Source: Brachyhypopomus gauderio (Eukaryota > Chordata > Actinopteri > Gymnotiformes > Hypopomidae). Taken from it: a stretch of DNA of 64,000 nt. Positions 5,955-64,000 of the stretch are shown in pieces (the first letter of the stretch is position 1; every line of letters begins with the position of its first letter). Below the pieces are notes generated by a model. That model saw only the letters and a program-made list of their open reading frames with translations. It did no database searches and was not told the DNA's origin. Location of the stretch: positions 20,790,048-20,854,047 of the forward strand of contig NC_135212.1 in the NCBI RefSeq assembly GCF_052324685.1, read 5' to 3'. The position numbers and the translations under genes were made by a program.

Positions 5955-28535
<22,581 letters not shown>

Positions 28536-52870: not shown

Positions 52871-52920
52871 TTAATTATCAGTGGCGGAGCTAGACTTTTT
52901 TTCAAGGGGTGGCCAAGGGG

Positions 52921-55467
52921 TAGGGCTGCAAATCTTTGGGAATCCCACGATTCGATTCAGAATCAATTCTTGGGGTCACGATTCGATTTTTTCCCGATTC
53001 TTTCAGATCCCAACGATTCGATTCAAAAACGATTATTTTCCGATTCAAAAACGATTCTCAATTCAAAACAAGCTACTCCGGTCTGCTGGCATGAAAGCAG
53101 AGTACATTTATAAAGATATTATAATTGTAAAGGTTTATCAACATATTGCAATAATGTAAACACACAAAGGTAAATCCAAGACAACATGTCTGTTTGAGGC
53201 TGACACTCAGAACACTACATTAAACTAATAAAACTGTAGTAAAGTAAATAAAATTGGTAGGCTTAGGCTAGCTGCCAGAACTGGCCACTACTCAAAAATT
53301 TTATTATACAAAAATACTCACCCTAACCCTAACCCTAGCTTTCTGTAAAAACAACAAATTGCTTCATACAAGAATTAGGCTTAGGCTAGCTGCCTATTTC
53401 TGAGAACATGCCACTTCCAGAAACAAAATTACACGTTTTTCCTTAACAAATCACAAAAATAAAAAATATATGAAAGTGCTTCCAAAAATAAAAGTGCTGT
53501 TACATTAATAAAATGGGTAGGCTTACGTTAGCTGCCAGAACTTCCTCTTCACAGATGAAAAAATATATAGGCTATACCGTATTTTCTAAAAGCCGCATAT
53601 ATCTACTGAACTGAATTCATTTAACTGAACTGATGTTCACTCATGTGCGACGGTTTTGGCTTGTGTGTTGTGGCGAATTCCGACTCCCCTCGTTTACCCA
53701 CATAAAGACGCTACAGATTATGTTGTCGATTTACGTTTCTATGCATAAATAAGAGCTAGACTTTAATTATCTATCACGGCAAACGGCATTAACTATGTCC
53801 AAAGCCACACTGGCTCAAGGGTGTTAATTATTTTAAATAAAATACACACTGGCTATAACGAAGTTTACCTCTGACCACGACTTTGCAGTATTACAGCAGT
53901 ATTATGTCTAAATATATAGTTACGACAAAACTAGAGTGCTCAATGAACCAAGTTAATTTTATTTTTTATTGTAACTTTATTTTACCAGGAGTTATAATCA
54001 CTGTAACTCCCGAATATCATCTGTAGCGCCTTTATGCGTGTGCAAACAATCAAGCCCATTCTAACTCGGGTCGGGTTGACGGTAAAATCTAAAGTGTTGC
54101 TTTCAAAGACCGTGGAGCCGTTTGGACTTCATACTTTAGCGGCGCAACAACAAATACCGTACACTACACAACCCGCTATAGCTTTACTAGCATGCCTGTA
54201 CATAGTCAAAGCTGTTTCCTTGTTTTGCCTAGCTCTTAGTGATGTGTCGTTCGCGAACGATCCGGCTCTTTGAAGTGAACGATTGGAACCGGCTCCACAA
54301 TGGGAGCCGTTTTAGGATCCTATTTGGGAGCCGCTTTTTCCTTCAGTATTGCGCTTGTGCTCTGCAAGTGCCACAGTTTTTTCCAACATCGTTTTTATTT
54401 GTCCTTCGGTGCCTCGCTGTCTCTCCCTCTCCTTGCGCGTATTGCTCTGTTTCTGCCAGTGGTAGAGCATGCTTGGTGCGTCGTTACCAGCGCGAGAGTC
54501 CGTGCGCCGAAAATGACGCAATCGCGGTGGCTCCGCCCCTGCGTGAGGACCCCCATGCGAAGCGAAGTCGTGCACCTCTTCAAGCACTTGTACGTCACTT
54601 TTCAATATTAAAAACGGCCATTTTCAATATTTCCCAGCACCTTAAACTTAAATATTTATACATATACTCGAAATTATTCGAAATAATTTGCTTTTTTATC
54701 ACATCGATTCAGTCAGACATATTTGTTGTGAAACAAAATACAGTTACATTTTTTAGCACTTTTCAAACCTGGAACACAATGCAACATTAATTTCCGTCAG
54801 GTAAATGTTCCTTCCCCTGTTTTTGAGGGGTATTTCTTTATACTACCACACATATCGTTTCGGACAACACTGCAAAGAATGTCTCCACTGCCTGCATGTT
54901 AAGCGTGTGCTCCACGTATCTGACCAATCACACGCAGCTTTCAGTTAATAATGTGGTGGGAAAACACTGAAAAAAAAAAGTCTCCACTTTTTTTGTGGAA
55001 ACGGCAGGCAATTGGCCAAACTGTATTGCATTCTATTTTGTGATAATTTTATAATTGGTTATAATAAAACTATTTTTATTTATTTATTTTTTTAATTAAT
55101 TAATTTATTTATAATAAAACTAACTTTATTTATAAAGCATTGCTATGCAGCATTTTTACTAATCACAAGTGCTTAACAATGTCAATAATGAAACAAAATG
55201 TTATAAAATTAGGTTTAAGCTATTAATTAATTAATAATGTAAAAAATATATATGGGGAGCCGTTTGGGAGCCGAAAAGAGCCGGCTCTCCACAGTAAGAA
55301 GAGCCATTAGAGCCGCATCTCAAAATAGAGCCGAAAATCCCATCACTACTAGCTCTACGGTGGCTGAGAAGGCACACACGCACCCGAAAAAAAAATCGTT
55401 TTTTGAAAATGAGAATCGATTCTGAATCGTTCAATGTTAGAAACGCGATTCTAGCTCGAATCACCTA
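52921..55467. mobile_element. Middle hAT-type element with 8-bp TSD CCAAGGGG
   Basis: The left end TAGGGCTGCAAATC and right end (reverse complement TAGGTGATTCGAGC) are flanked by CCAAGGGG at 52913-52920 and 55468-55475. Subterminal gattcgattc-type motifs recur in both ends. About 1430 bp remain when the inner element is removed. No transposase frame is seen. Three loosely repeated blocks with taggcttaggctagctgcc lie at about 53260-53540. Confidence 0.87.
54237..55348. mobile_element. Inner hAT-type element with 8-bp TSD CTAGCTCT
   Basis: The ends are TAGTGATG inverted, with repeated subterminal gagccggctct / gggagccg motifs on both sides. CTAGCTCT flanks it at 54229-54236 and 55349-55356. 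The 1112-bp body has a GC-rich block near 54460-54560 with overlapping frames, none resembling a transposase. Confidence 0.9.
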
Positions 55468-55675
55468 CCAAGGGGTGACCAAAGCTTTATCCGAGGGGTC
55501 CACGGGGTTTGTCGACGAGTGTAAGTTGTCGACAGGGGTGGCGAGTGTAAAATGGACACAAATTAAATATTATGTCGCGATCGACCGGTCGCCAGTGGTT
55601 CAAGTTACCATTTCCAGTGGGGTGGCACTAGAAGTGGCACAGGCTCCCCCCTTTGGCTCCGCCACTGTTAATTAT

Positions 55676-62199: not shown

Positions 62200-64000
62200 A
62201 ACAATACAATATACAATTTTAGAGAAAGTAGTTTCTTCACAACTCTCTTCCTTCTTACAGACAGAACATTTCAGAGTTATTTCAGTCTGGATTTAGACCC
62301 CATCACAGCACTGAAACGACACTGACTAAAGTACTGAACAATCTCTTAATATCCTCTGATAAAGGACGTTTCTTTTCTCATACTGCTAGACCTCAGTGCT
62401 GCTTTTGACACCATTGATCATAATATTCTACTTAATAGGTTGGAGACACTCATTGGCATAAGAGGTCAAGCACTCTCCTGATTCAGGTCCTACCTGACAG
62501 ATCGTTACCAATTTGTACTAGTAAATAACGAATGCTCAGAGCATTCTAAGGTCAAATATGGCGTCCCACAAGGATCTGTACTGGTCCCCATATTATTCTC
62601 ATTATATATGCTACCACTGGGCACCATCATTCGTAGGCATGGTATTAGCTTCCATTGCTACGTAGATGATACGCAGTTGTATATCTTCCAATCCGGATGA
62701 TATCACTACTACTCTCAAGATTGAGAACTTCGTCCAGGACATTAAAAACTGGATGGCATCTAATTTTCTTCAACTAAATTCCGATAAGACTGAGGTGCTG
62801 ATTCTTGGGCCTAAAGCTGCTAGAAGCAATTGGGCTGATATTCCCCTTACTCTAGTTGGTTTTTCAGTAACACCTACATCTACCGCAAAAAGCTTAGGTG
62901 TCACTATTGATTCGGATCCTTCATTTGACACACACATATGCAATGTCACTAAGGCTGCCTTTTTCCATTTACGTAATATCGCCAAGCTGAGACACTTACT
63001 TTCATTAGCTGATGCAGAGAAGCTGGTCCATGCTTTTGTCTAGTCAAGATTGGACTACTGTAATGGTCTTCTAATTGGATGCTCTAAACAGTCCATAAAG
63101 AAGCTACAACTTGTAGAAAATGCTGCAGTTAGAGTCCTAACTAAGGCTAGAAAATTTGATTATATTAGTCCCACTCTCGCAGCATTACACTGGCTTCTGA
63201 TTAAAAAATTTGTCTGTTAACCTATAAGGTGTTAAATGGTCTTACCCCACAATATCTGAGTGAACTCATTGCTTACTACAACCCATCTCGCCCTTTGCAC
63301 TCCCAAAATGCTGGATCACTCCTAGTTACAAAAATTTGTAAGACTACAGCCGGAGGCAGAGCTTTCTCCTTTAAAGCCCCTCAATTATGGAATAGCCTTC
63401 CAGCTCCAATCCGAGATTCTGACACAGTTCCAATCTTTAAATCTAGACTTAAGACTCACCTATTTAATCAAGCCTTCAGCTAATATTCCCCTTGTAAGGT
63501 GTGGGGCTCGGGGGCCCTCAGACGTTGAGATTTCTGGTAATCTGAGATGTTGATGCTGTCATTCAGCTGGGTCATGGCATGACTCTAGTTGTGACAATGA
63601 CTTGGGTGTAAAACAATGTATCAGTGAGCCCTCATGACTGTGGTCATCTCTGAACTCCTCCTTTTAGTTATGCCACTATAGATTAGCCAGCGGGAGCCAC
63701 ATGCTCTGGCACGTGAGCTATGTATGTTTAAATCAATGGTGGTTTAAATTGATGTCCACACACTCAGTCTGTATTGTCTATCTTTTTGCATGCTTCTACC
63801 CAAGACGATTGCATGTAAGCATCTACAAGCACCTACAAGCACCTGGGAGATGGTCTGGCTTTTCCGGTGGATGTACTGATGCTGGGGTTGGATGTGCCAT
63901 TGCCACAAGAGGACGTGCTGATGCTAGTTCCTACCTGAGGCTCACCATCTGCATTGAAGGGACTGTGACTACTTGACCGGGGAACAAGAACCATAACTAT
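62200..64000 (+). pseudogene. Decayed L2-type LINE reverse transcriptase and 3' tail in a pak1 intron
   Basis: Translation in shifting frames shows reverse-transcriptase blocks in order: a [13 protein letters not shown] start (about 62280), [12 protein letters not shown] (about 62390), GVPQGSVL (about 62560) and CYVDDTQLY (about 62660), then ...LWNSLPAPIRDSD and FKSRLKTHLF near 63400-63470. These fit the L2/CR1 group of non-LTR elements. A TGA at about 62479 replaces a conserved Trp codon, the frame shifts at about 62685, and another stop lies at about 63042, so it is dead. The 3' region runs to the window end with the start of an aactat tail. It is antisense to pak1. Confidence 0.88.

What the first reader, a model, noticed from the sequence alone, without database searches (positions are those of the whole stretch)
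52871..55675. Three hAT elements nested inside one another, each with an intact 8-bp target duplication
Seen directly: TTAATTAT flanks 52879-55667, CCAAGGGG flanks 52921-55467 and CTAGCTCT flanks 54237-55348, with matching inverted ends CAGTGGCGGAGC, TAGG and TAGTGATG. Three exact duplications in the correct nested order give an unambiguous history: a 234-bp MITE, hit by a 1.4-kb element, hit by a 1.1-kb element. The unmutated duplications suggest all three insertions are fairly recent. hAT assignment follows from 8-bp duplications and terminal motifs.
Basis: partly seen in the sequence, partly recalled or inferred. Interest (0 to 1): 0.75.

Follow-up and report, generated by a model that had tools for sequence, protein, structure and literature searches.

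The report
Three nested non-autonomous hAT transposon copies
A small transposon copy in a fish-like genome was hit by a second one, which in turn carries a third, and solo copies elsewhere in the genome confirm the limits of all three; this is ordinary genome history, and the order of the last two jumps is less certain than first claimed.

Summary
The nest is real. A is 234 bp (TSD TTAATTAT), interrupted by B, 1427 bp (CCAAGGGG), interrupted by C, 1112 bp (CTAGCTCT); all three duplications are exact. Copies elsewhere in the same genome have the same limits with their own duplications: exact in 7 of 9 A copies, 11 of 21 B copies, and at 9 distinct C sites. No nest or pair was seen elsewhere; the B/C junction word occurs exactly once. 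hAT membership is well supported for C: a 2901-bp element with TAGTGATGGG ends, exact 8-bp TSD and Hermes-like transposase. For B it is likely; for A it rests on 8-bp TSDs and the end motif. Three corrections. (1) B's 'TAGG' end is damaged: this copy lost a net 15 nt of the family's right end. (2) Nested TSDs do not order B-into-A against C-into-B; private divergence does not differ (26/1407 vs 17/1053). One time-mark exists: both C TSD copies share a B mutation absent from 18 of 18 aligned B copies. (3) Intact 8-bp TSDs date little. Ordinary; low interest.

The parts
52871..52878 (.). left TSD of element A, TTAATTAT
52879..52920 (+). element A, left part (42 bp, TIR CAGTGGCGGAGC)
   Evidence: (40 matches scored of 216 candidates) the other 39 stop at or within one base of the B junction's shared T
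52913..52920 (.). left TSD of B, CCAAGGGG (part of A); lies in a pre-existing 11-bp near-repeat of A
52921..54236 (+). element B, left part (1316 bp, TIR TAGGGCTGC)
54229..54236 (.). left TSD of C, CTAGCTCT (part of B; other B copies read CTAGCACT)
54237..55348 (+). element C (1112 bp, TIR TAGTGATG)
55349..55356 (.). right TSD of C, CTAGCTCT
55357..55467 (+). element B, right part (111 bp) with right end shortened by a net 15 nt
55468..55475 (.). right TSD of B, CCAAGGGG
55476..55667 (+). element A, right part (192 bp, TIR CAGTGGCGGAGC)
55668..55675 (.). right TSD of A, TTAATTAT

Best explanation
Three non-autonomous hAT elements from three different families landed one inside another by ordinary cut-and-paste transposition. 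A 234-bp MITE (A) sat at a TTAATTAT site; a 1.4-kb element (B) inserted into A at CCAAGGGG; a 1.1-kb element (C) inserted into B at CTAGCTCT, before or after B reached A. Each was moved by a hAT transposase supplied from elsewhere (inferred); no sign of a transposase was found in any of them. After insertion (inferred, not shown) B lost a net 15 nt from its right terminal inverted repeat, which probably crippled it.
For: Exact TSDs in nested order. C family: 22 of 29 other loci have 8/8 TSDs at the predicted ends; 14 of those share one TSD and flank (taken as duplicated segments), leaving 9 distinct exact sites. B family: 21 of 29 other loci examined for ends, 11 with 8/8 and 5 with 7/8 TSDs. 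A family: 18 distinct loci examined with a strict end pattern, both ends found in 9, TSD 8/8 in 7 and 7/8 in 2 (its printed tally, 7 of 10, counts one locus twice). Empty sites in paralogues: A copies read GTGGCCAAGGGGTGACC exactly in 3 of 9 distinct copies, with one change in 2, and lack one 11-bp unit in 4; B copies run through the C site without insertion in 18 of 18 aligned. No A/B or B/C association elsewhere in the loci examined. hAT: 8-bp TSDs; sites of all three pooled favour T at 2 and A at 7 (45 of 80, p 1e-7 against an assumed 28%; mostly due to B, 25 of 36), the Hermes preference given in PMC10368747 (passage read); a transposase-bearing element with C-type ends. No Pfam match above cut-off in 10 of the 29 ORFs.
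Against: No transposase-bearing partner was found for A in the 20 hAT loci sampled, and for B only right ends of the GCAGCCCTA type near two hAT domains (left ends untested). The C-type transposase-bearing element shares only the terminal bases with C, not its interior. A and C sites by themselves show little of the nTnnnnAn preference. 10 of 21 B copies, 7 of 29 C loci and 2 of 9 A copies lack an exact duplication. No orthologous empty site in a related species could be examined.
Confidence: 0.93

Rival explanations
1. C was already inside B when B transposed into A, so the last jump was a 2.5-kb B+C unit rather than C alone.
For: Nested TSDs are identical under both orders. Private substitutions of B (26/1407, against 18 other copies) and C (17/1053, against 14 other copies) do not differ (Fisher p 0.76).
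Against: No other B copy with C at that site (0 of 29 loci) and the junction word is unique, though cut-and-paste need leave no donor copy. Tree branch lengths lean to B older (0.032 vs 0.021), without a test of significance.
Confidence: 0.3
2. A, B and C form one composite element that moves as a unit.
For: They are contiguous and share an outer TSD.
Against: All three occur separately with their own TSDs; none of 29 C loci has B next to it, none of 29 B loci has C inside.
Confidence: 0.01
3. The CCAAGGGG pair is a pre-existing repeat of A, not a duplication made by B.
For: A carries an 11-bp near-repeat, CAAGGGGTGG/CCAAGGGGTGA, around the site, so the window has three units where the longest form among the 9 other copies has two.
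Against: Removing B and one CCAAGGGG gives exactly the sequence of 3 of 9 other A copies; other B copies have 8-bp TSDs at the family's ends.
Confidence: 0.02

Closest known systems
hAT superfamily, Hermes-like (Ac-type) elements
   Same: 8-bp TSDs; short TIRs; C ends TAGTGATGGG shared with a 2901-bp element coding a Hermes-like transposase in the same genome; T2/A7 site preference for B, as reported for Hermes (PMC10368747, passage)
   Different: no transposase found in A, B or C; C interior unlike the transposase-bearing element; A and B have no shown partner; that Hermes belongs to the Ac group is recalled
hAT MITEs, such as mar in Drosophila (PMC3517528, start of abstract seen in search listings)
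   Same: short non-coding hAT-type copies with TIRs and 8-bp TSDs, moved in trans (inferred)
   Different: B and C are 1.1-1.4 kb, longer than typical MITEs (recalled)
Nested or clustered transposon insertions (clustered insertions of Stowaway-like MITEs are mentioned in PMC3695323, start of abstract seen in search listing)
   Same: one element serves as target for the next
   Different: nothing in kind; here three layers, all hAT-type, all TSDs exact

Membership tests
hAT superfamily (A) | 8-bp TSD at element ends across independent copies | tested here: met
   7 of 9 distinct copies exact, 2 with 7/8; both ends found in 9 of 18 loci read
hAT superfamily (A) | transposase-bearing relative with the same ends | tested here: inconclusive
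   no CTCCGCCACTG end in 20 stretches downstream of hAT domains; 20 of 150 listed hits sampled
hAT superfamily (B) | 8-bp TSD across independent copies | tested here: met
   11 of 21 exact, 5 of 21 7/8
hAT superfamily (B) | target preference nTnnnnAn | tested here: met
   T2 in 11 of 18, A7 in 14 of 18 sites
hAT superfamily (B) | transposase-bearing relative with the same ends | tested here: inconclusive
   2 of 20 stretches contain GCAGCCCTA, the complement of B's TAGGGCTGC; left-end searches unanswered
hAT superfamily (C) | 8-bp TSD across independent copies | tested here: met
   22 of 29 loci exact, 9 distinct sites
hAT superfamily (C) | transposase-bearing relative with the same ends | tested here: met
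   C8 element, TSD GTACACAG both sides, ends TAGTGATGGG, 506-aa frame matching Hermes at 6.6e-22 and PF05699; interiors differ
hAT superfamily (A, C) | target preference nTnnnnAn | tested here: inconclusive
   A: T2 4 and A7 5 of 11; C: T2 6 and A7 5 of 11
non-autonomous element / MITE | no transposase coding, dispersed copies of similar length | tested here: met
   no Pfam match above cut-off in 10 of 29 ORFs; copies

The most novel reading that the evidence does not exclude
B may have jumped into A with its right end already cut down to about TAGG, which would mean a hAT transposase can use an end that has lost most of its terminal repeat and still make a perfect 8-bp duplication.
Probability: 0.06. 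Interest if true: 0.45.

Novelty: new member of a known kind. Interest (0 to 1): 0.15.

Why it matters
It is a clean, fully bounded nest that fixes the ends of three repeat families in this genome and gives a worked example of what nested duplications do and do not say about the order and age of insertions. It does not change ideas about hAT transposition.

Tried and rejected
Composite element moving as a unit: rejected by solo copies. Counting 8-bp repeats plus inverted ends in the window against shuffles: useless, swamped by a TA microsatellite near 48.8/50.2 kb. A stricter scan lists 9 pairs: C, one further hAT-like element at 23463-23843, and seven with 8 or 9 of 12 end matches that I did not follow; its complexity and TIR filters exclude A and B. 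Dating: private substitutions and branch lengths do not separate B and C; no species-specific rate was available, so no years are given. The identity percentages printed by the genome search for near-full-length hits (mostly 80-91%) are lower than the ungapped values (93-97%), because indels are counted; an early impression that the copies were old came from that. A search of papers for terminal letters listed two papers on other subjects; searches on nested insertions, teleost hAT and hAT target sites showed nothing on this locus in their listings. The shortened B end was sought elsewhere: 12 places at up to 2 mismatches (control pattern: 18); the window's own has 1 mismatch, the other 11 have 2; five of these, read, are normal B ends matched on the other strand of a palindrome; the remaining six were not read.

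Full report
What is there. The window lies on contig C2 of a 797-Mb genome; its left part codes exons of a myosin VIIa (PDB 9dfv E 6.6e-38; Pfam myosin head). That the genome is a fish's is my inference from size and repeats; no call names it. The nest lies at 52871-55675, some 30-40 kb to the right of those exons. With the inserts taken out, the layers are A 234 bp, B 1427 bp and C 1112 bp.

Are the limits real? Yes, judged by copies elsewhere in the genome. Only the best candidates are scored by the search, so copy numbers are lower bounds. C: 30 loci fetched including the window (40 candidates scored of 4538); 22 of the other 29 carry an exact 8-bp duplication at the predicted ends; 14 of these have the same duplication and flank (ATTAACTC) and I take them as duplicated segments, so there are 9 distinct exact sites. 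The 7 without an exact duplication include truncated matches. B: 30 loci fetched (40 candidates scored of 1352); of the 29 others I checked ends in 21: 11 have exact duplications and 5 have 7 of 8 (which takes the best match near the end); of the remaining 5, one has N in its flank and one (L062) shows its duplication displaced by 2 bp, by eye. A: 40 candidates scored of 935; 18 distinct loci read, both ends found by a strict pattern in 9, duplication exact in 7 and 7 of 8 in 2.

Do the layers travel together? Not in what I saw. In 40 scored matches to the A/B junction only the window's own runs on into B (216 candidates). Among 29 other C loci with 1.5-kb flanks none has B, and among 29 other B loci none has C inside B or A around it; short A fragments (34-66 bp) lie in the flanks of three loci and short C fragments in three. 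The B/C junction word occurs exactly once; the two places with one mismatch contain neither B nor C beyond chance-level matches. 559 places lie within 3 mismatches (control pattern: 32); the tool listed only the first of them, mostly one recurring other word.

Empty sites. In B, all 18 aligned copies run through the C site without an insertion. 17 of 18 read CTAGCACT there and one has a 5-nt deletion that spares the A; none reads CTAGCTCT. Since both duplications around C in the window carry the T, that substitution most simply arose in this B lineage before C arrived and was copied with the target. This is the one direct time-mark in the nest: this B lineage had already parted from the aligned copies when C came in. 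In A, 3 of 9 distinct copies read exactly the sequence obtained by removing B and one CCAAGGGG, 2 have one change, and 4 lack one unit of an 11-bp near-repeat that happens to lie at the site. That near-repeat makes the CCAAGGGG pair by itself weaker evidence than it looks; the empty-site match and B's duplications elsewhere carry the case.

The damaged end of B. Most B copies examined end in ...CGAATCGATTTTTTCCTGCACCCCTA or close to it, followed by the duplication, so the family's ends are TAGGGCTGC and TAGGGGTGCAGG. The window copy ends in ...CGAATCACCTA: a net loss of 15 nt that leaves the last bases and the duplication intact. No other place with this end was found at up to one mismatch in the genome; of 11 places with two mismatches five were read and are ordinary ends, six were not read. 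It is therefore most simply a private deletion after insertion, but the order is not shown.

Age and order. B's terminal branch is 0.032 and C's 0.021 substitutions per site (18 and 14 other copies); A differs from the majority of its aligned copies at 5 of 219 columns. Private changes are 26/1407 in B and 17/1053 in C, not different (Fisher p 0.76; the numbers of compared copies differ). At such distances an 8-bp pair survives untouched in 61-72% of cases, so intact duplications say little about recency. Other B copies, such as L043-L045 (99.9% alike at different sites), are much younger than the window's. Nesting alone cannot tell C-into-B before B-into-A from the reverse.

Are they hAT? The genome is rich in hAT transposases: 150 of 150 scored PF05699 matches pass the cut-off (2223 candidates). 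I read 0.9 kb downstream of 20 of these, chosen by eye for variety. One (C8, L104+L109) is a 2901-bp element with TAGTGATGGG at both ends, the duplication GTACACAG on both sides, and a 506-aa open frame matching Hermes transposase (6dww, E 6.6e-22) and the hAT dimerisation domain. The first 11 bases of its left end equal those of C's right end; the interiors do not match beyond chance. Two others (L092, L101) contain GCAGCCCTA, the complement of B's TAGGGCTGC; their left ends could not be checked. None has A's end. Insertion sites pooled over the three families (40 sites, 7-of-8 pairs included) favour T at 2 and A at 7 (45 of 80, p 1e-7 against a 28% background that I assumed), driven by B; A and C alone show little. 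The pattern 5'-nTnnnnAn-3' is the Hermes preference (PMC10368747, passage read). hAT elements have 8-bp duplications and short TIRs (PMC3942097, passages read). Of 29 ORFs of 40 aa or more over the nest, the 10 tested have no Pfam match above cut-off, so I take all three as non-autonomous and moved in trans (inferred).

Verdict. A well-formed, three-layer nest of non-autonomous hAT elements: a new instance of a common thing.

Noticed in passing
window 23463-23843: Another hAT-like element: 365 bp, exact TSD TCCTATGG, ends CAGGAGTGACCA/CAGGGGTGGCCA (10 of 12).
   Followed up: partly
L019-L025, L027, L030-L033, L035, L038: 14 of 29 other C loci share one TSD and flank (ATTAACTC): C seems to ride in a much-duplicated segment on small contigs, on C23 and on C1.
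   Followed up: no
L043, L044, L045; L063, L064, L065: Groups of B copies 99.4-99.9% identical at different sites, five of six with exact and different TSDs and one 7/8, point to recent bursts of the B family.
   Followed up: no
L075, L076, L080: A-family matches with only the right part of A in the stretch read, or with about 0.7 kb of other sequence between the halves: the family's parts combine with other interiors.
   Followed up: no
window 53227-53282 and 53487-53542: B contains an internal direct repeat (56 nt, 82%), seen in many other B copies too.
   Followed up: no
window 10379-10828: Exon of a myosin VIIa gene.
   Followed up: partly
window 62666-63043: Open frame that looks like a LINE reverse transcriptase fragment (recalled resemblance; no Pfam match at 0.01).
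   Followed up: no
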